From assembly GCF_033568475.1 (NCBI RefSeq), contig NW_027331831.1, forward strand, positions 13,020,001 to 13,084,000: a stretch of DNA of 64,000 nucleotides, given 5' to 3'. The translations under genes and the position numbers were made by a program. The stretch comes from Henckelia pumila. Lineage: Eukaryota; Streptophyta; Magnoliopsida; Lamiales; Gesneriaceae. The notes under the pieces were generated by a model, which saw only the letters and a program-made list of their open reading frames with translations, had not been told where the DNA came from and searched no databases. Positions 22,883 to 64,000 of this stretch are shown piece by piece; position 1 is the first letter of the stretch; every line of letters begins with the position of its first letter.

Positions 22883-23044
22883 TGTAGTGACCCGTATCCA
22901 AAACTAATAATTAATGAGTAATTAATCATGTGATCATGTTTAGACTAAGTAAAACATGATTAAAAAGATTTCAAATGGATTAACGGAGTCCGAAAATGGA
23001 TCCGAAACACTTGAAAATAGTCGGGAAGGTTTCGAGACTTAGGC

Positions 23045-23430: not shown

Positions 23431-26400
23431 TGAGGCCAAGGAGCTCATTTCACAATCGCACCAATTTCCTCTCCTTTTCCCACGTGAATCTATTTTAGGG
23501 CTTTGGGTACTCTTATTTTAGAGTTGGAGTTGGAAATATGTTTAGTATAGTCAGACAGTGTCTGACATAGTAGCGGGATAGTGCTCGTGTAGTGGAGCCA
23601 TGTTCGAGGCTGTGGAGCTGCAGCAGGGGTGTGTAGTAAGGACTGCTAGGACTGCCTGTAGTAAGGTACGTAAGTATTAATTGAGATTGCCATCGGGTAT
23701 GCATGCTTATATGTTGCATTTATGCATTTGCATGTGATTGCATGTACCTATCATATTGTGTATGTACATCTTTTGAGATGAGCCAGTTAGGATTGCTCAG
23801 CCCTGTTTGGACGTTTTGATATTGAGTACCCTTAGGTACTGGTATCTAGAGGATTCCATGGTCCGCGACCAAGATTCGGGAGTGAGTGGTCGCGCACAGT
23901 GGTTAGCGACCCCGATGTGACGAGCTCATGTCCCAGGCGCCAGTATGAGCAGTTTGTATACAGTTATCCTTGATATGGATACCCCGTCATTTGCATGTAT
24001 CATATTTGTATGTTTATCCATGATTTCGTATTGAGCTTAGAGCTCACGTCCAGTCTTTTCTGTGTATCTGGACACCCCATTCGACGGGGCAGGTGTAGGT
24101 GCATGGTTGAGAACCAGGAGCTTGGAGTAGCCAGTAACCAGTGAAGACCGCAGGATTAGCTGTAGGTTTTATTTAAGTTAATTCGATTGAGTTGTATATT
24201 GGTTTAATTAACCGGTTGTATTCTGCCGGTTTGTTTTTATTTAAGTCTTTCGCAGCGATTTATTTAATGCATTCTTAATCATGCTCTTAACTCTGATTAG
24301 GTAGTGGATTCGGATAGGATCGCTACATTTATTGGTATCAAAGCTGCATGCAAGAGACTTGGGAATAAAGTACTGAGACTTTGGATTATCCTCTTAGGAT
24401 TGGTAAAACCTAGCGAAGGATGATTTGGTTCTTCATTGCCAAGGTTTTCGGCAGAAGTCTTTTCTATAAGGAATGCAGCAGTGATGAGAACACTAGCATA
24501 TCGATAGATAGACTGACTGCTGTGGACGGTTCATCATTCAATGCATTGGGAATACTGATCGAAGAACATATGGATTCCAGCCGGAGAAGCCTGGAAAAGA
24601 AGAACAAGTACATTGCGTCAGATACCTCTGAGGACTTTTTGGAACGAATGGTGTGTAACAACCCATGTGGTTCCAGTTCAAAGAAATTCTCCACTCGTAG
24701 TTGGAGAGATTGTCATAAAGACCTTCACAGGGAATGCCTCAAGTGGCTAAGGCATGACTGGTTGTGAACGTAAGGTCATTAAAGTCATGCAAAACATGGT
24801 TTTGCCGGTATGCTTGTATCGATGTTTTTGGTAGGCACACGAGAAACTTCATGTTCAAAATCATGAATAAGTTACAAGAAGAACGCTGACGGTAGATCGT
24901 GAGCAGAAGAGGTCGACTGTCAGGCACTGATGCAGAGCATAGCTGGTTAGCAAGCACGGATCATTTCTTCGGATGTCTTTGCAGGAGGACGGGTAGAGAG
25001 ATTTAGTCAGGAGTATACTTACATTGATGCGTGTGTCTATTAGAAGCTTAATGCTCAAGGAACGAAGACGAGTACGATGATTTTAAATATTGTATTGTTG
25101 TAGCTGTAAAAAATATTTCAGTTGTAATGAATCATCAAAATCCGGTGGTATCATTCAAGTTATTAGTTGTACATTTTGTTGTATTTTTGGAATACTGTAA
25201 TTGTATTACATGATATTGTAATAAAAGAAATTTTACATAACTTGTAGCAAAGATACATGTATTACTTATCCAGTAATTCGTGAATGACTGCGGTGATCTT
25301 GCTAAGTTTGGCTTGTTATTAGTTGATTAGTGTTCAACTATTGTAACTCATAGGTTTTGAGTAAGCTAGCTGTAACTCTTTGACTTGTGGTTAGTCTAGG
25401 CTTTTCCTAGGATTGACCTAGTTATTCAGTGGACTAAGTTAGTGCCAACGATGAGTTGATTCATCAGTGGGCATGAGTTTTGTTCTAGGTTGTTTCCTTA
25501 GAATAGTAGTCTGATGACCTTCGTAGGTTGAGATTTTGTGATTATGGGATTTAATCGGGATGTCAGGTCCAGTATATGCCGGGAGTTGTGGACTATGACC
25601 ATGACTTGACATAATGGGGCGCGACTCTATGCCAGTGTTACTATGGGAGTCTTTGTACTTCAGAAGTTGCCTGGAAGCCTTCGTGCTTTAGGATTGGTGG
25701 TGGGAAGACTACTCATTCTAGAGTCTTGGTAACAGTCACGACGGAGTATGACTTTGGATTAGATGTCTAGTTTGGTATCATGATTTAGATATCGTCTGGC
25801 TTTTATCAGGGATATTGGTTTGGGTTTCTACCGTGAGGACCAGTCTTGGAGGGATTTCTTTGACGAGCGTGTACTTTGAGCAGATAGTTTTAGTCTATGG
25901 GATACTGCTAGACTAGTGGATATAGTCGGTGATTGGATTCTCTTGTGATAGGGTTTATCCAGGAGATGAGTTTGTAAACTGTCTGGGACATTGACTCGGA
26001 GGAGAGTATTTTCCAGCGATGAGAGTTTTTCTCAATAGTGAATTATATCAGATGCTAAGGATTGCACAGGACTATTTGAGGCATAAGGGAAGCGTGACTT
26101 ATGTAAGTGTCCACTTGGTGGTGATTTTAGGTGGGACATCATGGTAGGTTACCTCACTCTTGATTTGTTGTCGTCTTAGCGAGAGATATAATTATCAGGA
26201 GCATGTTCAGCGATACTTGGAATCTTGCGGAGTTGTATTGTGTCTTGGGTTTGGCAAGTCCTAATGATCATCAAAATATAGTGTAGGACCTTGGGTTGCT
26301 AATCTCAATCTTAGGACAATTAAAGAATAAGCATCCTTAATTAAAAAGAAAAGAAATCAAATTTTTATTTTGACAAATATTCATAAATTCTAGATTTATA

Positions 26401-26533
26401 TAAAAAATTTGAGACATTATAAGACTCAAATATAAAATAATTCAACTTAATGATTCAAATATCTTTAACATATATACGCTGAAATTCTAAATAAATTCAA
26501 GAAAAATTTATTATATGATGATGAGTGTGTGTC

Positions 26534-26863
<330 letters not shown>

Positions 26864-28950: not shown

Positions 28951-29967
28951 TTAAATTAAATTACCCGTGACGTGCAAAGTATCCAGTGCTGCTTCCTCTG
29001 CCTGCATCACAAAGACTCGTCCAACAGCATTCTTCTTGGGACAATGCAGCATAATGTGTCCCGGTTCCTTGCAATGGTAGCACATGCCTGATCCCCTCAT
29101 ACACGGTCCTGGATGGGGCTTCTGGCATTTCTGGCAGAGAGGTAGTGCTTCTGCACGAGGAACGATAGCTCCTTGCTGTCTCAGTGGACTTGGGCCTTTC
29201 GACGGCCCAGTAGACTGCTTCTTTTCATCCCGCTGTGGATACGACTCATGGTACGATGTTTGTAGCTGCCTCTTCCTCTGTTGCTCCCTCAAGATATCCT
29301 TCCTACCCTCCTCGGATCGTAGTGCCCTACTCACCGCTGCCTCATAAGTGGTGACGTCCAACATGCGTACATCATGCTTGATGTCCGCCCTAAGCCCATC
29401 AACAAACTGTCTCAATTTCTCCGGTGCACTGTCAGCAATAAGGGGTACGAAGCGACACCCCCTCTCGAACTGTGTAATGTACTCCACCACAGACTTGTCC
29501 CCCTGACGGAGACTCATGAACTCCCGGATCATGCGGCTGCGCACATCCTCAGTGAAATACTTGGCAAAGAACATACGTCTGAACTCTATCCAAGTCAAAG
29601 TAGGTAGGTTCACGCCTCTAACAGCGCCTTCCCACCACGAGGCTGCATCCCCTCTCATCATATAAACTGCACACTTGACTCTGTCCACATCTGTAATCCC
29701 CATGTAGTCAAAGATAGACTCTAGTGATCGGATCCATCCCTCGGCAATGAGCGGATCAGTGGTGCCTGTAAACTCCTTGGGTCCCTTCTTCTGGAACCGT
29801 TCAGCCACATCCTCATCGTGTGAAAGCCTCGGACGTGCCGCCTGCTGCTCCAACAGAGCAGTAATCCCAGTCATCATATTGGCATTGGCCTGCTCCAATG
29901 CTGAAAGAGGATTCTGTGGAGGTGGAGGTGGAGGTCCCCCACGTCTGTTCACTGGTCTCGGAGGCAT
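28951..29967 (-). CDS. gag: Ty3/gypsy Gag polyprotein, intact ORF
   Basis: An open frame of 338 codons from the MPPRP start; a start five codons earlier (29982) is also possible. A Pro-rich N-terminus and a Gln/Ala-rich helix precede a retrotransposon-Gag domain (about residues 60-210), with phrases such as AEGWIRSLESIFDYM, RGDAASWWEG, FRRMFFAKYF and SVVEYITQFERGCRFVPLI. A basic linker follows, then a CX2CX4HX4C zinc knuckle (CYHCKEPGHIMLHC) near residue 305. Gag packages element RNA into particles. The frame ends about 25 residues after the knuckle, where the protease should start; no protease, RT, RNase H or integrase follows before the 3' purine tract. An element like this could move only with enzymes from a relative. 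Confidence 0.88.
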   Translation of the reverse strand: MPPRPVNRRGGPPPPPPQNPLSALEQANANMMTGITALLEQQAARPRLSHDEDVAERFQKKGPKEFTGTTDPLIAEGWIRSLESIFDYMGITDVDRVKCAVYMMRGDAASWWEGAVRGVNLPTLTWIEFRRMFFAKYFTEDVRSRMIREFMSLRQGDKSVVEYITQFERGCRFVPLIADSAPEKLRQFVDGLRADIKHDVRMLDVTTYEAAVSRALRSEEGRKDILREQQRKRQLQTSYHESYPQRDEKKQSTGPSKGPSPLRQQGAIVPRAEALPLCQKCQKPHPGPCMRGSGMCYHCKEPGHIMLHCPKKNAVGRVFVMQAEEAALDTLHVTGNLI

Positions 29968-30185
29968 TCTGTACCACCACATATTTCTTTACGTAAATCG
30001 CCATGCATAACTAATATTTTTGACTTTAAGACTGTCGTAACTTTAAATTCTCATTTTCATAAAAAAAAAAAAAAAAAACATAACTCATGTGTCCCATGCA
30101 TAAATCATAATTTAAAACACTTAAAACTTACAGACTGGCAGTGCGGCTTCTGAGCTCCGTGTAGCAGGCTAGTAACCCTCCAAGG

Positions 30186-30203
30186 AACCTGGCTCTGATA
30201 CCA
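30186..30203 (-). promoter_or_regulatory. tRNA-Met primer binding site of the gag-only gypsy element
   Basis: The minus strand reads TGGTATCAGAGCCAGGTT, which from memory is fully complementary to the 3' end of plant initiator tRNA-Met. It lies two bases after the end of the 5' LTR and fixes the element's orientation and LTR boundary. Confidence 0.88.
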
Positions 30204-46212: not shown

Positions 46213-48358
46213 TCAAAAAGAAATGAGATCATCTTCGGATGGATGCTGTTTCTTCCTGTCCTGTGTTTGTACCGATGTACCACCATTTTTCTTACCAAAA
46301 ATCATCTCATCAAGATCGTCCAGCATCTCGTCATTGTTCCGTTCTTGATGGTTTCCACGTGGAGTACCAGATGGTTTCCTGATAAGAGTTTCTTTCCCTC
46401 CAAGTGGAGAGTCATCAGGCTCGACAGCGACTGGAATCATAGCAGGCTCGGGTTCCTGTGCCACCGCTAATGGTTTTTTCATGTCTTCGTACTTGGATAG
46501 AACCTTTTGAATCTCATCATTCACGTTCAGTGCTTCAAACAGCAAGGCCTCATTCTCTCCAGCTGTCTCGATGATTCTTTGAACAGTGTACTGGGATTCA
46601 TGACATTGTTGTAATAGCATGATGGTCAGGTCATCCTGCAATCCAAGTTGAATGTAAAATCAAACTAAGAAAAAGAAGACAACAGTAGCTGATTCAGTTC
46701 CTCTCCTATCGACCATAAAATTGCTACCAAATAACCAATCTAGAATACACAAACCAAGCTTTACCTTTAAAGCAATAACAAATGAACATGTTCTTACCCC
46801 ATTGTCACAAATCAACAGTATGTATACAAAAGAAAGCAATAATGGAGTATAAAGAGTTTCTTACACGGCTAAATTTAAAAGTTTGATGTCAGTCATAACT
46901 CAGTAACAGTACCTGCAGAGCATCTTGCTGTGGAGAAGAAGACAATACAGTGCCGAGAAGCTCTAAACTGTTTCGAGCCACATCAAATGCCTCCTTAGTT
47001 TGTTCTGCTGAAAAGCTTTGAGCTGGAATATTCTGATGGAGATGTTGTGCAAGACTAACATTTGACTCTGAGGTTGTCACGGATCTTGGAGGAGTAAATA
47101 TAGGAGCCAGACTCTCATCATCACGGCCAGGAAATCGTATCCCTCTAGATTTCAAACTCTGAGTTGGAAGGAAGATTAGTCTTAGACAAAATAGAAGTAC
47201 ACACCACACAGTCTCTTCTCTTATGCACAAGTGATGCCGAGACAAAGCATGTTATGGCTTGCTTTCACATGAATTTGTAAGTTCACTACACAAATGGCTA
47301 AAGAAAGTGTCCAACAACTATATTGGTCCAAAACACAACTTCGTCGACCATCCTTCCAAGAATTGTTCCAGTTGCCTATAGTTCTATAAGAAATCAGTGT
47401 ACTACTATCTATTACTACTCCATCAATTACAATTCAAAAGAATTTTATCATAGCGACCATCCATTGATACGCGATTAACAACTCAAAAACCTTATATATA
47501 GCAAAATGAACAGGTAAAAGAATTCATATAACAACAATCCGGATAGTAATGGGACAGTAAGGAAAAATTACTTGAGGAAAATGAATATCTAGTTAAGTTG
47601 CAAATATTCATCCCACAAGAATCTCAAATCATGGACATGAAATATCAAGCTTGAGATGTAGTTCTATTTTAATAAATTTTAGGTAGAAAGTGATTATAAA
47701 AACAAAAGTAACCAACAATATATTTTTTAAGAGAACATTTTCTTAAAAAAACCATTAGTTTACTAAGTTGGCTTCTCCAACTCAACGCACTCTTGAACTG
47801 CAAATGTACCTTGTAGGTCTCTTCATAAACAGGCAAATAACGCAACTCGTTTGAAGATTCGCCCCATGATTCTATCAGCAGAAGAGCCTTATTCCTGTTG
47901 TTGACCACAGTTTGGGGGTCATCAACCAGCTTCACCATCTCATCCAGCACCCTCTCGGAGGCAACCTCTGAGAATGCCTTTTCACAATTCTTCACAACAG
48001 TTTCAAGCAACACCAGAGCTAAAAACTGAACCCTAGGGCTATTAAACAAGATTCTTTTCTTTATTCCCCTTATCAATTCAGTGCTACTGATCCTCTCGTG
48101 GTTTATCATGTCACAGAGCTCAAGATTGGTGGCCCAATCAGGCCCGTCCAAAGTTTCAGCCGTGGCTTCCTCAACAAGCTTGTCTGCTTGGTTTGGTCCT
48201 TGGAATAACTCCTTCATCTTGAAACTCATCGAGCTCATACCGGCACTAATCTTCTGTCCCATCTCGTTTCCTCCAATCTTCAAGCGCTCGCCCAAGGCGC
48301 TGACTTTATCCATCAAATTGTCACTCATGCTTTCAACACACTCTCCAAAAATCCCCAA
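46213..48358 (-). CDS. TOL1: TOL (TOM1-like) VHS-GAT ubiquitin-cargo adaptor, three exons, 405 aa
   Basis: Exons 47810-48358, 46913-47158 and 46213-46635 join at GT-AG sites in phase 0 to 1218 bases. The VHS domain occupies about residues 55-180 (ATAETLDGPDWATNLELCDM, LALVLLETVVKNCEKAF, LIESWG). The GAT helices lie at about 215-320 (EQTKEAFDVARNSLELLG, LQQCHESQYTVQRIIE, LNVNDEIQKVLSKYEDM). An acidic, disordered tail ends DDLISF. TOL proteins bind ubiquitinated plasma-membrane proteins and hand them to the ESCRT machinery for vacuolar degradation, a role like ESCRT-0. The length is close to that of Arabidopsis TOL1 (At5g16880), and the GT47 neighbour matches too. AGAGAG/GTAGGT near 48843 suggests a non-coding first exon and 5' UTR intron. 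Confidence 0.92.
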
Positions 48359-48930
48359 CCAATCCCGAGTTCTTCAAGTGCTAATGATAAAAACAATACA
48401 GTCAAAGCCCAAAAACCCTGCTACGAATATGAACTGTTCCATTGATCTTATCAGCCGATCAAATTTGAATTCTACACTCATAATGACACACGAGAACAAA
48501 CGCATGACTCGTGCAGCCAGTTCGATTCAAATACCAACAAAATTATAGAAAAACTGCAACATAACTCGCAAAAGCGAACGAATTCAATTCACATAACATG
48601 CATTTCAATTCAAGCAATCAAATGGATATCTCAAATAAAAAAACACCAACAATATAAACGTAAACAAACGCACTGCAACCAATTGAAAAGGTCAATCCTA
48701 CCTGAACGAGTAATGGATCGATAACTTGGGAAAAAAGCAATTTATAACGAAATTAATATCACACCACAGACAATGAAATCCTGGAAATCATAATAATCGA
48801 CAAAGATAAAAGATTAAACAGCTTAAAACATGATTACCTACCTCTCTGCCTTAGAAGTGAAGTGATGAAGACAATTGCTGGAGAAGAAGACTCTTATTCC
48901 AAATGCGCGTCGTTTGGGGAGACTTTTGTA

Positions 48931-48986
<56 letters not shown>

Positions 48987-49709
48987 TATTTATTTATTTA
49001 TATAAAAAAATATTCGGGAGGGACTTCCAATGTTTGGTGCTGCTGACCAGACCCGGCCAAAGTTTATTTCTTTCGGTGGATTATGGATAGTGCGTGACCA
49101 AGTATGTAAACGAGTCCATTCGAAAATTATTTGATTTATGTTCGGATTTATCAAGTTTGAATTAAACTCGAACACATTCGAATATTTTTTCAAGCTGAAC
49201 TTGAGCTCAAATGATATTGTTCGATAAATATTTTTAATATAACGAGTATTTGTTTTCGATCAATAATTTGAAATTTAAATATTTCGAGCTGCTGAACTTA
49301 AACCCGAGCTCTAATTCGAATTGAACACAAACAAAAAAAAAAATCAGCTTTGAATCAAGCTGAATATATTTTAAGTAGAATTCAAGCATTAAATTTGTCA
49401 TCGTATTCAACTTGATTGGGGTTGTCTACATTCTACTATGATGTGACTATTTGATTATTTCTATAATTTATCAAAGTCCATTGATTTGAGTTGAATAAAA
49501 ATTAATTACTCCACAAATTAGGTACTTTGCAATAGGATGACCGGTAAATTATAAATTCATACCCAAACCTATTTTCATTTTACATTTTAATACTTAATTC
49601 ATTAAAACTTATTTTATACTCCTTAGAGAGAGAAAATTTTATTTAAAAATATCAATTCTACCCTTATCTATTAAAAATCCTAATAAATCACTAAAAAAAA
49701 AGTGAGATA
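48359..49709. other. TOL 5' region, (TA)n microsatellite and flank of the viral insert
   Basis: It holds the probable 5' UTR intron and promoter of the TOL gene (to about 48930), then a (TA)n run at 48936-48979 followed by (TTTA)n. 49080-49400 is a decayed CGAGT/TTCGAA-type repeat. The last 250 bases before the viral ORF are AT-rich host-like sequence. No gene seen. Confidence 0.5.
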
Positions 49710-51754
49710 ATGGATACTAAAAACAAAACAAATCCAAATAGTATTTATATAAAAATTCAAATTAAAATCAAAAAACATAAATCATATCATATACATGCTT
49801 ATGTTGATACAGGAGCAAGTATGTGTCTAGCAAGTAAACACATACTCCCAACTCATTATTGAAAGAAATACGACAAAGGATTAAAAGTTCGAATAAGAGA
49901 TGGATCAATAATCATGCTTAATACAGTAGCAAAAAAATTAAAAATAGAAATAGAAGAAACAAAATTTGTAATACCCATTATATATCAAATAGAATCAGGA
50001 ATGGACATTATAATAGGAAATAACTTTTTAAGAGAATATCTTTCCTTTACACAATTTGAAAATTACATAACTTTAAACAAAGGATCATCAATGATTTATA
50101 TTCCTAAAATACGAACAGCATTTCGTGTAGGAAATGAAGGATTTACAAAGAATTTTCATAAACGAAATACAAATCCAATAGAATTAAAAATAGAAAATAT
50201 TTTAACAATTAATCATAAAAAAGAAATCATGGAGAAATTTCATGATATTTTTTCTGAAAATCCTCATGACAAAATTAAGAAAAGAAAACAATTCATTGCT
50301 TCAATAAAACTTAAAGACTCTAATATCACAATCCGTGAAGCACCAAGAAGATGCAACATAGATGATGTAAAAATATTCGAAAAAGAGGTTCAAGAATTAC
50401 TAAAACTTAAGATAATCATCCCAAGCAAGAGTCCACACTCTTCATCAGCCTTTTATGTCATTAAGAAAGACACTGATAAGAAAAGAATGGTAATTGATTG
50501 TCAAAAAATGAATAATGCAACAATTATGGATTGATATTACTTCCCAAACAAGAATGATTTACTATCTTATATAGGAGGAATGAAATATTTCTCCAGTTTA
50601 GATTGTAAATCAGGATTCTGGAAAATTCAGCTAGAACCACAAACACAATTACTTACATCATTCCGTTGTTCAAAAGGACAGTATCAATGGACTGTATTAC
50701 CTTTCGGACTTAAACAAGCACTAGGTATCTTTCAAAGATATATGGATGAATCTTTTAAATCATATGTAGATTTTTGTTGTGTTTATATAGATGACATATT
50801 AATTTATTCAAAAACACTAGATCAAAATTATAAAGACCTCATGACAGTATTAGATATTTTTCATAAAGATGGAATTATACTTTTTAAAAAAAAAGCACAA
50901 TTGTTTAAAACAAAAATAAATTATTTAGGATTACAAATAGAAGATGGAAAACATTGTTTACAACAGCATATACTTAAGAAAATTCACGATTTTCCTAGTG
51001 AAATCAAGGATAAAGATCAATTAAGAAGATTTTTAGGATTATTAACTTATTCTGGAAATTACATTAAGAAACTTGCAGAAATCAAAAAACCTCTTCAGGT
51101 AAAACTTAAACAAGACTACAAGTGGAAATGGTCTAAAGAAGATACTAATTACAAAGATACTATTAAAAATAAAATAATTAGTAATCTTCCTCAGTTATAT
51201 TTTCCTTCCAATAAAGATATAATAATAATTGAAACAGACGCTTCAGATGAATACTGGGGAGCATGTTTAAAAGCTTATACAGGAGAAAAAAATTTAGAAG
51301 AACTTACTAAAACAGCTACTAGAAATAATGAAGAATTATGCAATTATACATCAGGAACTTTTCAAGGTGCACAATTAAATTATCATTCAAATGAAAAAGA
51401 ATTATTAGCTTTAATATTCACAATTAGGACTTATGAAATTTATCTTATTCCTAAACCATTTTTAGTAAGAACAGATAATATGAATTTAACATATTTCAAG
51501 AGAAGGAAAATATCAAGAAATGCAGGGAAAAATGCAGCAAGGCTAATTAGATGGCATTGGAATTGAATCATTATCAGTTCGAGATCCAACATGTCAAAGG
51601 AACGAATAATTCATTACCCGACGCATTAACCAGAGAACTTCATCCAAATTATACTATCCGTAGTAACGGAATAACAAAAAAGATCCTAAGTGATCCAGAA
51701 AATGACCACGGGTCATCCGAACATGCCTTAGAAATCATGGGGAACATAAATTGA
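49710..51754 (+). pseudogene. Caulimovirid protease-reverse transcriptase-RNase H ORF, broken
   Basis: About 680 codons long, like the family's ORF V. In order: a retropepsin motif D-T-G-A-S (near codon 33), an IIGNNFLREY segment ending the protease, an RT domain with YIDDIL as catalytic motif (around 50796-50813), and an RNase H domain with E-T-D-A-S-D (around 51231-51248). It replicates the genome by reverse transcription. Breaks: in-frame TGA at 49860-49862 and 50532-50534, and a one-base frameshift close to 51551, after which another frame carries the C-terminus to 51754. It is the first gene of the insert; in an unintegrated genome it would follow the coat protein ORF, whose end lies at 57151. 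Confidence 0.9.
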
Positions 51755-51893
51755 TGAAATGAGATTTATATTCAGAGACATGAATTATTTTATGACTTTC
51801 AGTCATCCGAACATGCCTCAGAAAGCATGGGAAATATAAATTGATGAAAATGAGATTTATATTCAGAAACATGAATTACTCTATGAGTAAAGA
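51713..51893 (+). repeat. Imperfect 90-bp direct repeat over the end of the polymerase ORF
   Basis: Two copies (51713-51802 and 51803-51893), both starting TCATCCGAACATGCC, with about ten differences. The end of the polymerase ORF (51754) is in the first copy. Confidence 0.75.
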
Positions 51894-52012
51894 CAATCAA
51901 TCTCATTTATGAAGATTGATTCAATTCTTGCAAAAGAATTTCATAAATGCAATGATACGCATATTAAAACTATCCGAGTTACTCACGAAAAAGAGTTAAA
52001 TTTCTAACCATT

Positions 52013-52037
52013 TATATATATATATATATATATATAT
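52013..52037. repeat. (TA)n microsatellite inside the viral insert
   Basis: About 12 TA units between the polymerase and transactivator ORFs, just before the latter's start. It probably expanded after integration. Confidence 0.8.
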
Positions 52038-52043
52038 GTTTTA

Positions 52044-53226
52044 TTGTGCATGATGGAGCAATTAAATCAATTAGAAGAACAATTGATTGACATGGATGAA
52101 GAAATTCAGATTCTTCAACAAAGAAAAAAGAATATAAAAGGAAAAATTCAGAGGATTAAAGAAAAGATGACAACATCATCATCATCATCCTCACCAAAAA
52201 CTCCAATCAAGTTAGCAACTTCATTTATCAAAATAATGGAGATGAATGAAAAACAGTCAGTGGTCACAGCCAACACTGATAACCAAGAAAAAGAAAAGAA
52301 GAAAGAACCGGTGGTCACAGCCAACACCGAGAAAAATGAAAAAAAAGAAAGGACGTTTAAAAGTGCCCTTGAAGCAAGAGAAAGAAAGATGGTCAATCTG
52401 CGACCACAAAAACCAATTTTTGAAAAAACAAATTTTTCAGAAAAACTCAAGACTGAATTTTTTGAAACACTAAACCATTTAAGAATAGCCAAACCATCTG
52501 CAGAATCTTGGCTACAAACTTGTGACACACAGAGCATATCAAGAGCAAGAACACTGCAAGGTGCTCCATCGCATGAAGTCGCAAGATTCTTTTCAAATAG
52601 ATTATTAAGTGGATTGGAAGTCAGTCCCAACAATCAAGAAATAGAACTATTTCCATATCAGTTGAGAAATAGTATCATCCAGTTCAAGAAAGCAGTCTTT
52701 AAGGACGATTCAGTATTAACATTGAGTATTCACTCAACCCTTCTAGATTGGGATGATAACAAATTCTATCAACCAATGGTAATATTCAATGTCGAAAACA
52801 AAAGGACAAGTTCTTATTCGAAGGATCAAATGAAGAGAAACCAGTAATGGATATCTCAACACTTCCTGAGATAAGAATAAAGACATTGATTGACATGATC
52901 TCAAAGACAGGAAAGATTGATGAAAACTCAAAGGTTAAAATAAATTTTGCAACCAGTAAAATTTTATTAACTACTGGACACAAGGAGACAACCAAAAGAA
53001 AGAACAAGACATGTTAGCTCAATTCGAAGCTCCAATCTATGAAGCAAGAGTTGACATGACCCGAAAAACCTAACAAATGCTATGTCAAAGACTAATAACA
53101 ATGATTTTTACTCATAAATGTGGACATTTCCAACCCATTCAGATAGAAGAAGCAGCTGTCAAAGAAGACAAACCAATAAAAAAATGGTCCGAATGTACCA
53201 GTGATTCAGAAAGTGACACAATGTAA
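52044..53226 (+). pseudogene. Caulimovirid translational transactivator (inclusion-body protein) ORF, broken
   Basis: The N-terminus is a coiled coil (LEEQLIDMDEEIQILQQRKK), followed by a Lys/Glu/Thr-rich linker. The core (about codons 100-250) contains LQTCDTQSISRARTLQGAP and a Leu-rich stretch, and resembles the CaMV P6 core. This protein lets ribosomes reinitiate on polycistronic viral RNA and forms inclusion bodies. The first frame ends at 52847. Similar sequence continues in a second frame from about 52800 to 53010, then in a third to 53226 with a TAA at 53071-53073. There are thus at least two frameshifts and one stop. The final part has a Cys/His cluster and an acidic end. Assignment rests on position and partial wording. 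Confidence 0.78.
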
Positions 53227-54006
53227 AAATAAATGAAATCGTGGACCATACCACATGTTAAAGGCATCCACTCAGATGTAAAATGAGCTTTTTTCCATTA
53301 TGTAGTGTCGGGTGGTCCCCCTCTTTTCTTTTATTATGTATGCGTTTCTCCACGCCTATAAAAGGAGATGTTTTGTACTGTAAATGGATAAGTAAAGTTT
53401 GAGTATCTCTCTCTTCTTAAGTTTCTTACAATTTGGTTCATACAAGACGTATGAAAACTACCAGAAACTAAGAAACATAAAATCAGAAACAAAAATAAGT
53501 CTTATGGCTAATAACTAAACAAGCAGGGCGTAAGGAGGATAAGGTTGGAAACCAACCATTGAAGATTCATGGTTAGAGTAAACCTGGAGATCCATAGAGC
53601 AAGTACCAGTTGATCAAGTGATCGTTAAGAGAAAGCAAGGATTTGGCCTCTGCTCAAAACCAAGATTCATTCAAACAAGGTAACCTTTCTAAATCTCCTG
53701 CAGCCCTTAATTCAAAGAAATATTCAAAATACGTTAATCATGTCATCATCCTTCATAAGAAATGGAAAATTGATAATAAAAAAACTGGTTTGAAATAGAA
53801 GATGATCATGAATATGATACATTTCATGAATATTGTTTAAATACTTCTGATTTAACCATATTCGAATCAATTTATCAACTAAAATTTGTAATTATAACCT
53901 ATGAATGAAACCAAACTAATCTGAAAACATTTATCTGTTATAAATGAATCAGATCTGTAAAGCCATGAATGAGAAAATTCATAAGAATTTGAAGAATTCC
54001 GCAACC
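53227..54006 (+). promoter_or_regulatory. Viral large intergenic region: pregenomic promoter and leader
   Basis: TATAAAAG at 53357-53364 (within CCTATAAAAGGAG) lies after the transactivator ORF, the place of the 35S-type promoter. The leader that follows holds short ATG-headed frames. From about 53760 one frame reads like protein except for several stop codons, mostly TGA, and continues past the primer site to about 54328. That suggests a decayed ORF that once spanned the primer site. Confidence 0.65.
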
Positions 54007-54018
54007 TGGTATCAGAGC
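54007..54018 (+). promoter_or_regulatory. tRNA-Met primer binding site of the viral genome
   Basis: TGGTATCAGAGC, complementary to the 3' end of initiator tRNA-Met. By convention it marks position 1 of a caulimovirid genome. There is no LTR beside it. Confidence 0.9.
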
Positions 54019-54335
54019 AGTTAAATAAAGCAGATTATTAATATCTGGATTAACTTTAGATATTGAGATTAAAAATTTATTTGATAAAATAATCTTACTA
54101 AAAGATTTACGTCAAATAGATCAATTATGGAATAAAATAAAAGATCTCCAAACCTTTTATTTCAAAAATCATAAAAAAGAACATTTTTCAAGCAACTGAA
54201 AAATGATAATTTAAATTTTTGAAAATGATGAAATTGAAGACATAACAATATGTTATGAATAAAAACAAACTTTGTTATAGAAATCCAATCAACAAAAACA
54301 AAATAATAAAAGTAACAATTTTTACTAAATAAAAA

Positions 54336-54548
54336 ATGTTTGAAAATACGAAAATGAATATCTTTAATTTATATTCTCAAAATATAAATTTTGATATAGA
54401 AAATTGTGAAAACAATTTGAAACATCTTAAAAATTGTCAATCTTCAATTGATAGTTTCGAAGATTTTCAGAATTTATTAGAACAGATAGATTCAACAAAA
54501 AGGCTTTTAATAGCCTTAAGAAAATTAAGAAGTTCTATCATCTGTTAA
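54336..54548 (+). CDS. Small viral ORF of 70 codons before the movement protein
   Basis: Short, Asn/Leu-rich and probably helical (ENNLKHLKNCQSSIDSFEDF). It ends one base before the movement protein ATG, so it fits a polycistronic viral RNA. Its place matches the small ORF that precedes the movement protein in caulimoviruses. I recognise no domain. It is one of two ORFs in the insert without a visible break. Confidence 0.5.
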   Translation: MFENTKMNIFNLYSQNINFDIENCENNLKHLKNCQSSIDSFEDFQNLLEQIDSTKRLLIALRKLRSSIIC

Positions 54549-54549
54549 A

Positions 54550-55480
54550 ATGACAGAAGTAACAATTCCAAATCAAAATAGTCAGATTGATGAATTTGAA
54601 GAGAACCAAGAGTATAATTTGAATATTATATTTAATCAGAATAAGTTTGCTGAGATACAAAAAACAGGGTTTTATAATTCAAAAACAAATCTAATAGACC
54701 AACCAGGAATATTAAGCAAGATTTCAAATTTTATTAATCCTAGAAAAAATTTAATTTATTATTCGATTCGTACAAAAGAACGATCTTGTAAAATAAATAA
54801 GGAATCAAGGTCTAATACTCTGAAGTTATTAACAACTCAAGATATTGATACCATCATGGCAAAAGCCAGTGAAAAAGAATGATCTGAACTAAAATATGTT
54901 CACATTGGAGGAATCGAAATAATAGTATCAGCTCACTACCGAGAAGGAATAGATACACCAATTGAAATCACAGTTCGTGACAAAAGGATACGTAATTTTG
55001 AGGATTCTATCCTTGGAAAAATTGAAGGAAACTTATGTTACAAAAAGATGAAATTTTGTATTTATCCACAATACAATATATCTCTTTTTGATAAAAACAT
55101 AAATGACGTTTTAACATTAGATTATTACTTTTATAGAAATAATCATATGTTAACAGGAAACCATCCGATCAATATAAACTATGTTGTCGGTTTAGCAGTA
55201 AGTAATAATTCTCAAACAGGAATAATTTCAACAAAACCAATTATTTCTGTTGAAAGAATGTTTGAAAATATTACAAGAATTGAACACCCTCAAAAAGCAT
55301 TTATTGAAGAAATAAATCCCTATAAAAGATGGAGGTCAAATCACAAAACAGTCTGTACCAAGAAGATCATTATCATTTGCTAGAAATGATTAAGATATTC
55401 TTGAAAAAATTGGAACCATGAATCAAAATATTCTTAAAATTAAACAAGCTATTGTTAATGAATCAACCTCATCGCAATGA
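54550..55480 (+). pseudogene. Caulimovirid movement protein ORF, broken
   Basis: This matches the 30K-superfamily movement protein of caulimoviruses by position and by phrases such as YVHIGGIEIIVSAHYREG and SILGKIEGNLCYKKMKF. It would widen plasmodesmata and pass virus from cell to cell. Breaks: TGA at 54880-54882 in the same frame as the rest. Near 55350 the C-terminal sequence (SLSFARND) moves to another frame, where a TAA interrupts it around 55389. That frame ends with TGA at 55478-55480, overlapping the ATG of the next ORF as ATGA. The frame open to 55383 gives a shorter end. Confidence 0.82.
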
Positions 55481-55770
55481 CGTCCTTAATAAAATTAGAA
55501 AAAGATCTAGGAGATTTAGAAAATAATATCAATAAGATCAATCTATCAATACAAGAGTTAGAGAAGAATTTCAAAGAATATATTGATTTAGCAACGACTA
55601 GATTAATAATTGAACAAGAAAGACGTAGTAATGAAATATTAAACTATCTTAAGGAAGTTCTTCCAATAGATAAAGGAAAAAGAAAAATGAAAGAAGAACC
55701 ACCATTCAAAATTGAATCATGGTATAGAAATCCCCTTAGTTATGACAAACATAAGTATGGAGATGTTTAG
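55477..55770 (+). CDS. Small coiled-coil viral protein, virion-associated-protein-like
   Basis: 97 codons and intact. The N-terminal two thirds show leucine/isoleucine heptads (DLENNINKINLSIQELEKNF). The C-terminus is basic and Pro-containing (KGKRKMKEEPP). A coiled coil followed by a basic tail just before the coat protein is what the caulimovirus ORF III product (virion-associated, DNA-binding) looks like. It overlaps the movement protein stop by ATGA and the coat protein start by 14 bases. No aphid-transmission-factor ORF lies between it and the movement protein. Confidence 0.65.
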   Translation: MTSLIKLEKDLGDLENNINKINLSIQELEKNFKEYIDLATTRLIIEQERRSNEILNYLKEVLPIDKGKRKMKEEPPFKIESWYRNPLSYDKHKYGDV

Positions 55771-57151
55771 TGAAATAGACTCATCTGAATCTGAACAAAT
55801 AGGAGTAAATGCAGAAGAATTATATCATTCACATCAAGAATCAGAACAATACAGAGATATGGATATTTCAGAATCAGAGTCTGAAGATGATTCTAGACCA
55901 CAATTAAATCTACGAACAAATGTAGAAGGTAGTGATGGAAGAGATGATGAAGAATTTAAATACAACAGAGACCAATACTCTGGATCTTATAAAGATGTTA
56001 GAGACATTCTTAGAGAATCAAAAATATCAGAATTTGTGAAACAAAATATTTTAGATTTAGGTTGTTCAACAACTAAAGAAATAAAATCAAAGATAGATCA
56101 TTGGGCAAATGAACTATCAGTACAAATTCAATTAACACCATTATTAGACAAAAGTGAGAATATTCAAGTTTTAACTTATGAGATGATAAAAATGACATTA
56201 GTAGGAGAAGTAAGAACTTGGGCTAAAAACCTAGTAATTACTAATCTACCACAAGGAATGACAGGACATTGATATTTCGAACTATTTGTTGATGTCTTGT
56301 ACCAAGAATTTTTAGGAGTTTCTAATAATGATGCTAATCTGGTAGCTAATAACATAGAACAAAAAAAGCAATTTTTATTCTAGATAATATTAAACTATGC
56401 AATTTATGTTATCTAGAAGAATTTATATGTGATTATGAAATAAACTATTATCAGTTAATAGATGCTGATAAAAAAAACATTATAAATTAAGTATTTTTAA
56501 TAAAATACCTAATATACCAATAAATAGTAAAGATGAATTCTTAACTAGCGCTTATGCCAAAACACTAGGAGGAGCTATTAAATTCATTAAAGATGTTATA
56601 ACAAAGAAATGTCATGAATTAACATTAAATAAAAGAATATCCAGATCTTACAAACAAAACAATAAACTTTATTGTGACAAAATGAAATTCACAGTAAAGG
56701 AATACGGTTGCAAAACAAACATATTACACAAACATTTAAAACAACAGAAACATAATAAATTTAATAAACCTTATAAATCTTTTAATAAAAAATTTATTCT
56801 CTATAAGAAAAAGAAATTTAAAAGAAATTTCTTCAGAAAACCTTATAAAAGAAAATTTTATAAAAAATTTGATAACAAAAAACCACCTTGCCCAAAGGGT
56901 AAAGGAAAGAATTGCACATGTTGGTTGTGCAACGAAGAAGGACATTATGTGAATGCATGTCCAAAACGAAACAAAAAGAAAAGAAAAATAAAGTTAAACT
57001 TCTTGAAGAAATATATACTATTAGATTCTATCCAGTAGAAACAATTGAATTTTCATCCGACGATGAAAATATTTATTATCTTGATGAATCAAGTGAATCA
57101 GATTTTGAATCTAATTCCACATTTGATAATTTAATAAATAAAAATGATTAA
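55757..57151 (+). pseudogene. Caulimovirid coat protein ORF, broken
   Basis: The start at 55757 overlaps the previous ORF. The N-terminus is acidic (SSESEQ, SESESEDDS). A capsid-core-like middle includes YEMIKMTLVGEVRTWAKN. A Lys/Phe/Tyr-rich basic region and a CX2CX4HX4C zinc knuckle (CWLCNEEGHYVNAC, 56919-56960) follow, and the tail is acidic (SSDDENIYYLDESSESD). This layout is diagnostic of caulimovirid coat proteins. Breaks: TGA at 56270-56272, TAG at 56381-56383 or a frameshift near it, a frameshift around 56475 in an A run, and another near 56985 in a Lys-coding purine run. The last frame ends at 57151. Confidence 0.85.
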
Positions 57152-57728
57152 AATAACGACAAGGGCATTTTTGAAAAATGCAACTCTAAGTACTAAACTC
57201 AAACTTTTGTTTGGCTTGGATACCTATTTCCAAGTTGCCCTAGGATGACTCTATTTTAATATATATTTCTGTTTTTTCTTTTTTGTTTGAATTTTTAGGT
57301 CAAAATTCTTTATCGCTGGTTATTTTTCAACTTTTCAATGATGTTGATATTTTGCCTGAATGGCGTACAATTTTACATTCTGTAATTCAGTATATCCTAA
57401 GAAGAGCTATGATATTTTTTTTCATATATATTTTTAATAATAATTAATTATCTACCCTCTAGTTTATATATACTAGTGACCGAGATACACACAATGCGTG
57501 TGTAACGATGTATTTAACAATAATGAAATACACACGACGATAAAAACTCATCAAATTAAAAATGAATAAACTACACACGACACGACGACAACTAGTATTG
57601 TTGACTTCTATGTGACATTACTCCACTGAAAAAAATAAGAAGAAGAAACAATTCTCCATCGCAAAATAAGACCGGAAACATCTAAAAACTTATTTTTGTA
57701 CTAAAACTCTAAAACTTAAAGATAAAAA
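57152..57728 (-). repeat. Right flank of the viral insert, with a Helitron-like 3' end
   Basis: No gene. On the minus strand a perfect 6-bp hairpin ACACAC/GTGTGT (57487-57503) is followed after 10 bases by CTAG (57473-57476) and T. This is the best of three Helitron-like 3' ends in the window; any element would extend to the right. Confidence 0.45.
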
Positions 57729-59086: not shown

Positions 59087-59126
<40 letters not shown>

Positions 59127-59129
<3 letters not shown>

Positions 59130-59291
59130 TTTTCAGCTGCCCAACAAATTTTTTCTCACTTCATCCCCAACCACTAAAATTCGGTGGTGGTTTTAGTGGT
59201 GAAAAAAATCAAAAACAAAAACAACTAAAACCCACCATCGAATTTTAGTTGTCGGGCATGAAGTAGAGAGAAATTGTTGGGCAGCTGAAAA

Positions 59292-59294
<3 letters not shown>
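59127..59294. mobile_element. Foldback element inserted in a (TA)n tract
   Basis: The 168-bp element has long inverted arms: AAGTTTTCAGCTGCCCAACA at the left and its exact complement at the right. Complementarity continues inwards through CTAAAATTCG/CGAATTTTAG. It is flanked by TA runs on both sides (59089-59126, 59295-59329), so it lies within a TA microsatellite. A transcript would form one long hairpin. Confidence 0.75.
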
Positions 59295-59330
<36 letters not shown>

Positions 59331-59371
59331 CATGATTAAATGTCTATGTTGTTCGGACGTGGGTGTAAATA

Positions 59372-60055
59372 TAGTAAAACCTCTATAAATTAATAATGTT
59401 AGGACTATAAAATTTTATTACTTTATATAGATATATTAATAATAGATAAATTAATAATTTATTAATATAAAGAGTGTATTTTCGCTCTAACTAATATATA
59501 GCAATTAAATTGATGTGACATTATAAATTTTTATATTATTTATTAAAAAATATTTATCCAGGTGAAAATAGATGTGTTCATAAGTGCAAAGTTTAGAAAA
59601 AATTACAACTAGCTAGCACAATTGAAAATCTCATTGATGATGAAATTGAGGATAATACAATACTTTTTTGACCATGTACGCGGAATCAAAAAATTAATAG
59701 AGAAAACTCATCACAATTTTTTGGCACCATTCGAGAACGCAACATCAGAGCTTTGGATGCAATGAGAAAAATTAAAGATGAAATTCAATTAGAATCAACT
59801 TCCAATTGATTTGAATTTTGAGAAAAAAAAATAACACTATAATCACAATTTTCTACCGTGTTCTAGTTATATTTTGTAATTTTAGAGGATTATTAATTTA
59901 TAATCTTGACTCACCATATATTTAATTATAAGGGTATTTCAAAAATCTATTATCTTATTAATTTATCGAAATTATTGATTTAATAAACTAGCTCATGTCG
60001 AGATTGAAAAAAACTATTTTATAGATGTTATTAATTTATGAGTATTAATTTACTG
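59372..60055 (+). mobile_element. Emigrant/pogo-like DNA transposon remnant
   Basis: The left end AGTAAAACCTCTATAAATTA resembles the Emigrant (pogo/mariner group) terminal repeat as I recall it. The right end read in reverse starts CAGTAAATTAATACTCATAA. Around 59580-59810 a decayed coding stretch is visible (SQFFGTIRERNIRALDAMRK, with a stop nearby), perhaps the transposase C-terminus. The 684-bp length and stops indicate an internally deleted copy. A TA duplication could not be confirmed. Confidence 0.55.
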
Positions 60056-61385: not shown

Positions 61386-64000
61386 AGAGATACACCTGCT
61401 CACAACTCCCACTGCATGTGCTATGTCTGGTCTGATGCACGCCATTGCATACATGAGGCTTCCGACAGCAGAGGCATAGGAAACCTTATTCATATAAGCA
61501 TGCTCCTGCTCCGTCGATGGTGATTGAGCTTTGGTTAGTTTGAAATGACTAGCCAAAGGAGTACTCACAGGTTTAGCTTCATCCATGTTGAATCTGCTAA
61601 GCACATTTTTCACGTACTCTGCCTGAGATAACTTCAAGACTCTGTTCACCCGATCTCTCAAGATCCTCATACCAAGAATTTGCTTCGCAGCTCCCAAATC
61701 CTTCATTGCAAATTCTTTTGATAACTCTCTCTTGAGCTTATCAATTTCCTCCAGACACGCTCATGCTATCAACATATCATCCACATATAGCTGTAGAATG
61801 ATATAAGAATCATCAATCTTCTTCACATAACAACAGTGATCTGCCTAGCACCTCAGAAAACCATTGTTATACATGAATCCATCAAACTTCTTGTACCACT
61901 GTCTTGGAGCTTGTTTGAGACCGTACAAGCTCTTGTGAAGTTTGCACACCATTTCCTCTGACCCACGTACTTCAAATCCCTGTGGCTGCTTCATATAAAT
62001 TTCTTCACCCAAGTCACCATGGAGAAATGCCGTCTTTACATCTAACTGCTCTAGATGTAAGTTTTCATTCGCCACTAATCCAAGTACAGTTCTGATAGTT
62101 GTCAGCTTCACCACTGGAGAGAAAATCTCGGTGTAATCAATGCCTTCTCTTTGTTGAAAGCCTTTTACAACAAGTCTTGTCTTGTACCGTTTGCTGCCAT
62201 CAAATTCTTCTTTGATCCGGTACACCCACTTGTTGTGTAATACCTTCTTGCCTTTCGGAATTTTCGTCAACTTCCAAGTCTGATTTGATGATAGTGAATC
62301 CATCTCGTCTTTCATGGCTAACTCTCACTTGATTGAATCATCATTTTGCATCGCTTCTTCGAAGGTCTCCGGTTCACCTTTATCTGTCAGCAAAATATAG
62401 TGAAGTGCAGGGGAGTATTTTTGAGGTGGTCTGATTGTTCTAGAAGATCTCCTGAGTTCAATTTCCGGATTTTGTGGGTCATCATCTTGTGCAACAGTTT
62501 TTTTATCTTTCAGGTTACTGCTTTCTGACTCATTCACAGGAATATCCATCAATGGTACTTCATCCGCCTTCTTGACTTCAGGACATTCATCACCAGCTCC
62601 ATCGCTTGACCTGTCCTTATACATCACATACTCATTGAAGATTACATCTCTGCTCCGAATGATCTTCCGATTTTGGTCATCCCAGAACCGATAACCAAAC
62701 TCATTATCTCCATAACCAATAAAGAGACACTTCTTGGATTTAGGATCAAGTTTTGTTCTACGAGTTGAATCAATGTGAACATATGATAGACATCCAAACA
62801 CTTTCAAGAAAGAAAGGTTTACTTCTTTTCCGCTCCAGACTTCTTCAGGTATTTTGTAACCAAGCGGTACCGAAGGTCCTCTGTTGATCAGATATGCTGC
62901 AGTGTTAACTGCATCAGCCCAGAATGATTTCGACAGCCCAGCGTGCAATCTCATGCTCCTGGCTCACTCATTCAGGGTCCTGTTCATCCTCTCAGCTACA
63001 CCATTCTGTTGAGGAGTACCGGGAATGGTTTTCTCCATCTTGATCCCGTTCAGTGCACAATATTTCTTAAACTCATCATTTTCATATTCTCCTCCGTTGT
63101 CAGACCGTAAGCACTTCACCTTCAAGTTGGTCTCATTCTCCACCATGACTTTCCACCTCTTAAAGGTTTCGTAAACATCAGATTTATTCTTCAAAAAATA
63201 AACCCAAACCTTCTTGCTCGAATCATCGATAAATGTGACATAGTATCGTGAGCTTCCAAGGGATGTCACAGGAGATGGCCCCCACACGTCTGTATGAACC
63301 AGCTCCAACTTTGATGCTTTTGGTTCCCTACCGCCTTTCGAAAAGCTCACCTTTTTCTGCTTTCCAAGGATACAACTTTCACACAGTTTGTGTTCGACAG
63401 TTTTTAACTCCGGTAGCTTTCCTTTTGATATCATCATCTTCATTCCCTTCTCACTCATATGTCCAAGTCTACAGTGCCATAGACTTGAGTTAGCTCCGGC
63501 ATCCATAGCTGCTAACATGTCTCTGCAACTGGAAGTCATATAGAGGGTTCCAGTTTTTGTTCCTCGAGCAATAATCATGTCTCCTTTGCTCACTTTCCAG
63601 GAACCATCACCGAAGGTTACATTATGGCCTTCGTCATCGAGCTGTCCTATTGAGATCAGATTTCGCGTTAGTCTTGGTACATGTCTGACTTTATTGATTT
63701 TTTAGACAGATCCATTTGACATTTTCAACCGGACATCTCCCATACCAACAATCTCCAAAGGTTTTCCATCAGCTAGAAAAACTTTTCCGTAATCGCCTGA
63801 AATGTAATTATCGAATATATCGCGATTACCCGTGGTATGAAACGAGGCTCCCGAATCCATAACCCAAGAATCAATCGGGCTTTCCATGGATAACACTAAA
63901 GCATCGTGTACATCCTCAGTCACAACATTTGCGTTGTTTGTTGATTTGCAGTTTCTTTTAAGATGGCCAATCTCACCGCAACTCCAACACTTCAAATTCT
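61278..64000 (-). pseudogene. Ty1/copia Gag-Pol, truncated, five in-frame stops
   Basis: One frame on the minus strand runs from the window end with no frameshift. In order: a Gag zinc knuckle (CWSCGEIGHLKRNC), protease D-S-G-A-S-F (near 63850), a GAG-pre-integrase region (WHCRLGHMSEKGM), the integrase core (LVHTDVWGP, FIDDSS, LRSDNGGEY, TPQQNGVAERMNRT) and RT (WVYRIKEEFDGS, QLDVKTAFLHGDL, YVDDMLIA). Stops lie at 63702, 62964, 62325, 61845 and 61761 (lowest coordinate of each codon). The copia reading ends after SRCIS (about 61390), so RNase H and the 3' LTR are missing; the last 35 codons to 61278 are unrelated. Lineage looks Tnt1/Tork-like. The 5' part lies beyond the window. Confidence 0.9.

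What the first reader, a model, noticed from the sequence alone, without database searches (positions are those of the whole stretch)
49710..57151. Nearly complete endogenous pararetrovirus genome, circularly permuted at the coat protein/polymerase boundary
One uninterrupted 7.44-kb block holds every core caulimovirid gene plus the promoter and tRNA-Met primer site, each once, in an order that is one rotation of the circular viral map. Most plant endogenous pararetroviruses are fragmented, so a single-turn copy is a rare archive. The opening point falls almost exactly between two ORFs. No LTR or integrase is present.
Basis: partly seen in the sequence, partly recalled or inferred. Interest (0 to 1): 0.9.

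Follow-up and report, generated by a model that had tools for sequence, protein, structure and literature searches.

The report
Plant virus genome travelling as transposon
The block is a worn copy of a plant pararetrovirus genome that sits between transposon ends and belongs to a family with hundreds of copies in its host genome, apparently spread as a jumping gene, which is not how such viruses are thought to enter or spread in plant DNA.

Summary
The viral block is real. It encodes PR-RT-RNase H, a transactivator-like ORF, promoter, Met-tRNA primer site, movement protein and coat protein, each once, all decayed. The unit is 49542-57240 (7,699 bp), with imperfect terminal inverted repeats (19 of 30) and an exact 9-bp target-site duplication, TAGGATGAC (49533-49541, 57241-57249).

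The host assembly (884.7 Mb) holds 297 sites matching the family's 26-nt 3' end (control 0). In three samples (60 copies), 35 had both ends: 25 have an exact 9-bp duplication, 7 one mismatch, 1 two, 2 none; flanks paired between different copies gave 0 exact of 386. A related empty site for one copy lies in this window.

Best explanation: a complete caulimovirid genome, near genus Caulimovirus, carried by a non-autonomous Mutator-like DNA transposon moved in trans. The MULE assignment is inference; no transposase with these ends was found. Pol dN/dS is below 1 in each contrast (0.19-0.61; window 0.27), so the lineage probably also had a replicating viral phase. I found no report of this in the library searched.

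The parts
49533..49541 (.). left copy of the 9-bp target-site duplication TAGGATGAC
   Evidence: exact repeat of 57241-57249 (seen by eye, coordinates); 9-bp duplications with at most two mismatches in 33 of 35 sister copies with both ends
49542..49571 (+). left terminal inverted repeat (first 30 nt)
   Evidence: 19 of 30 matches to the reverse complement of 57211-57240; 26 sister copies 17-22 of 30, shifted registers mean 9.1, max 16
49542..49709 (+). 5' non-coding end of the element
   Evidence: alignable to sister copies from about 49543 on, 74-85% alike over the aligned stretches; apart from (TA)n no match further left; shared 5' start among copies
49710..51650 (+). pol: protease, reverse transcriptase, RNase H; in-frame stops ending at 49862 and 50534 and a frameshift near 51551-51566
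   Evidence: Pfam; alignment ends
51712..51891 (+). tandem duplication of about 90 bp between pol and the transactivator-like ORF
52050..52847 (+). transactivator/viroplasmin-like ORF, continued out of frame in 52760-53017
   Evidence: position after RNase H; weak BLAST to parts of P0209, P0185, P0168; Cauli_VI domain not detected
53356..53365 (+). TATA box of the presumed pregenomic promoter
   Evidence: exact CTATAAAAGG; about 640 nt upstream of the primer site
53388..54006 (+). presumed RNA leader with short ORFs; fold somewhat more stable than shuffles (z -2.65; 1 of 20 shuffles folds as well)
54007..54018 (+). tRNA-Met primer-binding site
   Evidence: 12 of 12; the 12-mer is kept in 14 of 20 sister copies
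54333..55383 (+). movement protein, in pieces 54333-54548, 54529-54882, 54883-55383
   Evidence: PF01107 2.6e-31 in the last piece, the other two by position; 150 scored matches of the last piece in the host genome, itself included
55462..55770 (+). small coiled-coil-like ORF at the place of the virion-associated protein
   Evidence: position and weak coiled-coil-type hits only; PF03310 not detected here or in the one sister copy scanned
55691..57151 (+). coat protein in at least four out-of-frame pieces, CCHC knuckle near 56913-56966, acidic tail to 57151
   Evidence: coat domain weakly in three sister copies
57152..57240 (+). 3' non-coding end of the element
   Evidence: shared with sister copies (72-76% alike), which then diverge into unrelated DNA
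57211..57240 (-). right terminal inverted repeat (last 30 nt)
57241..57249 (.). right copy of the 9-bp target-site duplication TAGGATGAC
59366..59550 (+). related empty site for another copy (L001/L021): a host repeat uninterrupted where that copy carries the element
   Evidence: 79% over 185 nt, contiguous across the joint of that copy's flanks

Best explanation
A complete pararetrovirus genome became the cargo of a DNA transposon. Terminal inverted repeats lie between the coat-protein and polymerase genes of the former circle. A cut-and-paste transposase that duplicates 9 bp of target, most likely of the Mutator (MULE) superfamily and acting in trans, spread the roughly 7.7-kb unit to hundreds of places. 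The window copy is an old, inactive member. Shown: fixed ends, terminal inverted repeats, 9-bp duplications, one related empty site, copy number of the 3' end, viral gene content. Inferred: that the enzyme is a MULE transposase, and that between rounds of transposition the lineage also replicated as a virus (purifying selection on pol and MP).
For: 17 of 20 sample-A copies share the 3' end after the coat-protein stop. Of 40 downstream stretches 36 contain the coat-protein end and 0 of 40 contain pol; of 40 upstream stretches 31 contain pol and 0 of 40 contain CP or MP. Both ends in 26 of 40 copies of samples A+B, lengths 7,266-7,997, median 7,729; inverted repeats 17-22 of 30. 9-bp duplication exact in 25 of 35, one mismatch in 7, two in 1 (exact with a 1-nt shift), none in 2; cross pairs 0 of 386 exact, 12 of 386 with one mismatch. 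A second end type (L009/L029) also has an exact 9-bp duplication and 18 of 30 inverted-repeat matches. 297 3'-end sites, control 0; 676 end-like sites, control 1; 20 of 20 3'-end sites tested are preceded by the coat-protein tail. Related empty site in the window. Target bias towards TT.....AA in 28 duplications. An 858-bp deletion derivative keeps both ends, with a one-mismatch duplication. 150 MULE transposase matches over the cut-off among 1,188 candidates (only 150 scored), more than 25 in open frames of 700 aa or more. dN/dS of pol: window-main 0.27, L029-main 0.19, L028-main 0.26, L040-main 0.41, L022-main 0.61, main-main 0.49.
Against: No transposase domain in the element and no transposase gene with these ends found: none in 8 MULE loci, which at 3.3 kb are too short to hold whole elements. 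The inverted repeats are short and imperfect, unlike the long repeats of maize Mu. 14 of 40 and 11 of 20 sampled copies lacked a recognised end, 2 of 35 had no duplication, and several duplications are T-runs of low complexity. No exact abutting-ends junction in the assembly, so no direct sign of a circular phase. Some pol contrasts show only mild constraint (0.41-0.61), and window-L002 in MP gives 1.91. The ends diverge more than the body, which is unexplained.
Confidence: 0.85

Rival explanations
1. Ordinary endogenous caulimovirid: the viral circle was opened by chance at the coat-protein/polymerase border and joined into the chromosome by end-joining.
For: Gene content and order fit one turn of the viral circle; no integrase; this is a widely held route (PMC10377300 section 3.1, read).
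Against: The same two end points recur in 35 sampled copies, 33 with a 9-bp duplication of at most two mismatches; end-joining gives neither fixed ends nor fixed-length duplications.
Confidence: 0.03
2. One integrated copy was spread by segmental duplication or as a passenger in another repeat.
For: Copies are similar and some flanks are repeats.
Against: In the copies printed, flanks differ right from the element ends, duplications differ from copy to copy, and there is a related empty site.
Confidence: 0.02
3. Passive Pack-MULE: the viral genome was captured as dead cargo and only the transposase has moved it since; the selection signal dates from the free virus before one or more captures.
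For: Divergence among 11 copies is near neutral by codon position in pol (3.7/2.4/2.9%); main-main dN/dS 0.49 and L022-main 0.61; an 858-bp deletion derivative persists without most viral sequence.
Against: Window-type, main-type and L009-type copies all carry ends and duplications, yet pol differs between them under constraint (0.27 and 0.19), which is easier if the lineage carrying the ends still replicated as a virus.
Confidence: 0.35
4. The unit is moved by another enzyme with 9-bp target duplication, or by an unrecognised function of the viral proteins.
For: No partner transposon with these ends identified.
Against: 9-bp duplications with inverted repeats are a Mutator hallmark (start of the abstract of PMC2774946, seen in the listing), and MULE genes are abundant here.
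Confidence: 0.2

Closest known systems
Endogenous caulimovirids (EPRVs), e.g. florendoviruses, cotton eCPRVE
   Same: Complete or near-complete caulimovirid gene set in a plant genome, decayed, high copy number in some hosts (PMC10377300, PMC10458927, PMC4241990: passages; PMC10377300 also section 3.1)
   Different: Described there as chance insertions, often near (TA)n, fragmented, tandem or rearranged (inverted arrangements of whole ECVs are mentioned); the passages seen do not mention terminal inverted repeats with target duplications
Teratorn (piggyBac-herpesvirus fusion of fish)
   Same: Whole virus genome inside a cut-and-paste DNA transposon (PMC10175614, passages)
   Different: Teratorn is about 180 kb, a herpesvirus with its own piggyBac transposase; here a 7.7-kb reverse-transcribing plant virus, no transposase, probably a different superfamily. 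That review calls Teratorn the first fusion of a cut-and-paste transposon and a DNA virus, and says how endogenous pararetroviruses integrate and propagate is unknown
Mutator-like elements and Pack-MULEs
   Same: 9-bp target duplication, terminal inverted repeats, non-autonomous copies with foreign cargo (Pack-MULE behaviour partly recalled; abstract starts seen)
   Different: Cargo is a complete virus genome; inverted repeats short and imperfect; transposase partner not identified
Genus Caulimovirus (RT tree)
   Same: RT falls in a supported set of 30 rows with the named caulimoviruses; nearest row is P0179, from an 8,029-nt metagenome contig (61% identity)
   Different: Window plus P0179 branch outside the 27-row group that holds the named caulimoviruses (the joining fork is 94/72, not starred); VAP and Cauli_VI domains not recognised

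Membership tests
Caulimoviridae | PR-RT-RNase H of caulimovirid type, RT inside the family in a tree | tested here: met
   Peptidase_A3, RVT_1, RNase H; tree of 62 rows rooted on 3 Ty3-type rows
Caulimoviridae | 30K movement protein and coat protein with CCHC knuckle | tested here: met
   PF01107 2.6e-31; CCHC 1.9e-4, below cut-off; coat domain PF22909 2.7e-5 to 1e-3, below cut-off, in three sister copies
Caulimoviridae | tRNA-Met primer site downstream of the promoter | tested here: met
   12 of 12 at 54007, TATA at 53356
Caulimoviridae | circular encapsidated DNA genome | not testable with these tools
   sequence of integrated copies only
Genus Caulimovirus | RT inside the genus; VAP (PF03310) and transactivator with Cauli_VI domain (features recalled) | tested here: not met
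   RT with P0179 is outside the group of named caulimoviruses; PF03310 and PF01693 not detected in window pieces or in the one VAP-position and one transactivator-position sister ORF scanned
Mutator-like DNA transposon | 9-bp target-site duplication (8-11 recalled for the superfamily) | tested here: met
   25 of 35 exact, 7 one mismatch, 1 two, 2 none; 0 of 386 cross pairs exact
Mutator-like DNA transposon | terminal inverted repeats | tested here: met
   17-22 of 30 in 26 copies, shifted registers max 16; short compared with about 215 bp in maize Mu (abstract start of PMC2774946)
Mutator-like DNA transposon (autonomous) | MULE transposase gene inside the element | tested here: not met
   no such domain in the 14 plus-strand and 8 minus-strand ORF pieces of 60 aa or more of the element
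Mutator-like DNA transposon (non-autonomous) | partner with the same ends that encodes transposase | tested here: inconclusive
   MULE genes abundant; 0 of 8 fetched 3.3-kb loci show these ends; only 100 of 676 end sites were listed
LTR retrotransposon | long terminal direct repeats and integrase | tested here: not met

The most novel reading that the evidence does not exclude
A two-phase mobile element: a pararetrovirus whose genome carries transposon ends between coat protein and polymerase, so that it can live as a circular virus and be pasted into chromosomes by a host-supplied MULE transposase. The ends would have been part of the viral genome while the subfamilies diverged, and DNA transposition would be an answer to how at least some endogenous pararetroviruses integrate and multiply.
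Probability: 0.37. Interest if true: 0.95.

Novelty: new variant of a known kind. Interest (0 to 1): 0.9.

Why it matters
How caulimovirid DNA enters and multiplies in plant genomes is called speculative or unknown in the reviews seen here (PMC10377300 section 3.1; PMC10175614 passage). This family gives a concrete, testable answer for one lineage: DNA transposition with inverted repeats and 9-bp duplications. It would be a second case, in another kingdom and another virus class, of a whole virus joined to a cut-and-paste transposon. It also warns that a survey which looks for transposase domains in caulimovirid sequence (PMC9719215 reports none in one run, passage) would miss non-autonomous fusions.

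Tried and rejected
Chance opening of the viral circle plus end-joining: rejected on shared ends and duplications. (TA)n-flanked insertion: the nearest (TA)22 is about 560 bp from the left end, not at it. Tandem arrays: no pol in 40 downstream stretches; exact junction of abutting ends absent. Relatives in IMG/VR: four scans confirmed none. Transactivator homologues by database search: none. Solved structures gave no useful relative for three pieces. NCBIfam gave nothing. MULE loci L153-L160 show neither these ends nor, by the criteria, another GG-starting inverted repeat with exact 9-bp duplication, but they are only 3.3 kb long. The host plant was not identified. The dN/dS values for MP are biased because samples A and B were ranked by MP protein similarity; pol was not used for ranking but comes from the same copies.
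Full report
Observation. Stop-to-stop ORFs and Pfam confirm a caulimovirid gene set on the + strand: protease, RT and RNase H at 49863-51566, movement protein at 54883-55383, and a coat-protein CCHC knuckle in 56472-57038 (below its gathering cut-off). An ORF at 52050-52847 holds the transactivator position. Its weak BLAST matches, within a set of 219 proteins, are to parts of Populus, Taraxacum and Tanacetum proteins downstream of RNase H, and a database search with it found nothing. The primer site at 54007 matches 12 of 12. Pol is complete at both ends by alignment but has two in-frame stops and a frameshift. MP and CP are in several frames. The window copy is not functional.

Affinity. In a tree of 62 RT rows rooted on three Ty3-type rows, the window RT pairs with P0179 (100/99), an unnamed protein from an 8,029-nt metagenome contig, 61% identical. 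The pair lies in a supported set of 30 rows with the named caulimoviruses (97/81), outside the 27-row group that holds them (100/98); the fork that joins pair and group is 94/72. Named references came from the third protein search.

The joint. In the Abeliophyllum protein P0016 the coat-protein tail continues directly into the polymerase start. The window's right end matches it up to residue 118 and its left end from residue 114. Relative to P0016, which is itself a host gene model, nothing is missing at the protein level: the block is one full turn.

Other copies. The genome search answered for the first time: the window is G000:C77:13020001-13084000 of an 884.7-Mb assembly, and the movement-protein piece has 150 scored matches (2,423 first-look candidates), the other 149 being 90-95% alike. 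Sample A was 20 of the 28 best-ranked copies after the window, picked by hand. Downstream of the coat-protein stop, 17 of 20 share about 81-97 nt ending near ...GTTGCCC, followed by unrelated DNA. Of the other three, two (L003, L018) showed no coat-protein tail in the stretch and one (L009) has a different end. Upstream of pol, 15 of 20 have the shared start GGGTTAATTG... about 150-190 nt before the ATG; four of the rest had no pol in the stretch and one (L029, the same copy as L009) has a different start. Over samples A and B, 36 of 40 downstream stretches contain the coat-protein gene and 0 of 40 contain pol; 31 of 40 upstream stretches contain pol and 0 of 40 contain CP or MP.

Ends. The last 30 nt are an imperfect inverted repeat of the first 30 (17-22 matches in 26 copies; shifted registers mean 9.1, maximum 16). 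Most copies have their own 9-bp direct repeat at the two ends. Sample A: 9 exact, 4 with one mismatch, 1 with two (exact with a 1-nt shift) of 14. Sample B (20 other copies spread through the list): 10 exact, 1 with one mismatch, 1 none of 12. Sample C (20 copies chosen by the exact 3' end): 6 exact, 2 with one mismatch, 1 none of 9. Repeats between different copies: 0 exact of 182 + 132 + 72, and 8 + 2 + 2 with one mismatch. Some duplications are low-complexity T-runs. Not counted for lack of a recognised end: 6 of 20 in A, 8 of 20 in B, 11 of 20 in C. In A+B, 30 of 40 have the 5' end and 32 of 40 the 3' end; 26 have both, 7,266-7,997 bp long, median 7,729; in C, 8 full-length copies are 7,623-7,753 bp. 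The window copy fits: element 49542-57240, duplication TAGGATGAC. I first saw this by eye; one search gave the coordinates.

Empty site. The host flanks of copy L001/L021, joined at one duplication copy, align without break to window 59366-59550 (79% over 185 nt; local score 222 against at most 58 at up to 60 random window places). It is a related copy of the target repeat, not the orthologous site.

Numbers. The 26-nt 3' end occurs 297 times at up to 3 mismatches, control 0. A degenerate pattern covering both ends occurs 676 times, control 1. Of 20 exact 3' ends tested, 20 are preceded by the coat-protein tail, so in this sample the end is private to the viral unit. One of these 20 is an 858-bp internal-deletion derivative with both ends. 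Targets favour TT.....AA (28 duplications, T at position 1 in 23, T at 2 in 22, A at 8 in 22, A at 9 in 19). Exact abutting ends (junction of circles or tandems): 0.

Transposase. No transposase domain was found in the 14 plus-strand and 8 minus-strand ORF pieces of 60 aa or more. The genome has 150 scored MULE transposase matches, all over the cut-off, of 1,188 candidates; more than 25 rows have open frames of 700 aa or more. Eight fetched MULE loci of 3.3 kb do not show these ends. The assignment to MULE rests on the 9-bp duplication, the inverted repeats and the supply of MULE genes; it is inference.

Selection and age. In pol, which was not used to rank copies, the window against 15 pooled copies (one of 16, L022, left out for gaps) differs by 6.8/3.6/9.5% at codon positions 1/2/3; 11 copies among themselves differ by 3.7/2.4/2.9%. 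Nei-Gojobori dN/dS in pol: main-main 0.49 (dS 0.048), window-main 0.27 (dS 0.16), L029-main 0.19 (dS 0.24), L028-main 0.26, L040-main 0.41, L022-main 0.61 (L028, L040 and L022 have main-type ends but were set apart by their sequence). In MP, main-main pooled 0.33 and L009 against others 0.11; the window against single copies mostly 0.18-0.70, but 1.91 against L002; MP was the ranking criterion. So pol was under some constraint while lineages diverged, whereas recent spread looks closer to neutral. End branches in the pol tree are about 0.01 (median) and 0.043 for the window copy. With recalled plant rates of 7e-9 to 1.3e-8 per site and year these are roughly 1 and 3-6 million years.

Unexplained. 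The window's ends are 72-76% (3') and 74-85% (5', aligned stretches) like the main family's, while coat protein, pol and leader are mostly 91-96% alike. L009/L029 has nearly unalignable ends yet an exact duplication and 18 of 30 inverted-repeat matches. In the pol tree the window sits among main-ended copies rather than outside them. Either ends are exchanged between transposons, or bodies recombine.

Literature. Searches cover open-licence PMC papers only. The search for Caulimoviridae + transposase + terminal inverted repeats + endogenous gave one paper, a transposon-annotation guide (PMC10741241) seen only in the listing. PMC10377300 (section 3.1 and passages) calls the integration mechanism speculative. 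PMC10175614 (passages) calls the integration and propagation mechanism of endogenous pararetroviruses unknown and Teratorn the first fusion of a cut-and-paste transposon and a DNA virus. PMC9719215 (passage) reports no transposase-caulimovirid chimeras in one run. PMC9794742 (passages) lists retroelement-like transposition, rolling circle, unequal crossing-over and ectopic recombination as proposals. PMC4241990 (passages) describes florendovirus insertions near (TA)n. PMC13308828 was seen as abstract and passages; PMC11556137 as whole text.

Verdict.

Noticed in passing
8062-26786: Three head-to-tail copies of a roughly 6.94-kb unit (markers repeat at +6935 and +6960), each with a near-match (1 mismatch) to the tRNA-Met primer site at 10438, 17373 and 24333: perhaps a tandem retroelement or gene array.
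   Followed up: no
51712-51891: About 90-bp tandem duplication between pol and the transactivator-like ORF of the element.
   Followed up: partly
59092-59329: Inverted repeat arms of 65 nt, 95% complementary, 108 nt apart and containing (TA)n; looks like a small foldback element.
   Followed up: no
59366-59938: Host repeat that also flanks copy L001 on contig C3.
   Followed up: partly
28951-30203: Ty3-type gag ORF on the - strand with an exact tRNA-Met primer site nearby: probably a separate LTR retrotransposon.
   Followed up: partly
62325-63701: Fragments of a retrotransposon pol with integrase on the - strand (copia-like by domain set, recalled); the tRNA-Gln call at 62390 lies inside one and may be false.
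   Followed up: no
47669-48373: VHS-domain coding stretch on the - strand, about 1.2 kb left of the element.
   Followed up: no
L119 (with L139): 858-bp internal-deletion derivative: pol start joined to coat-protein tail, both ends kept, one-mismatch 9-bp duplication.
   Followed up: partly
L009, L029, L048: Subfamily with different termini (...TTTGCAAATGACCC 3' end in L009 and L048) on a related viral body; L009/L029 has an exact 9-bp duplication.
   Followed up: partly
P0179: Nearest RT relative, a 672-aa protein on an 8,029-nt metagenome contig, about the size of an episomal caulimovirid genome.
   Followed up: partly
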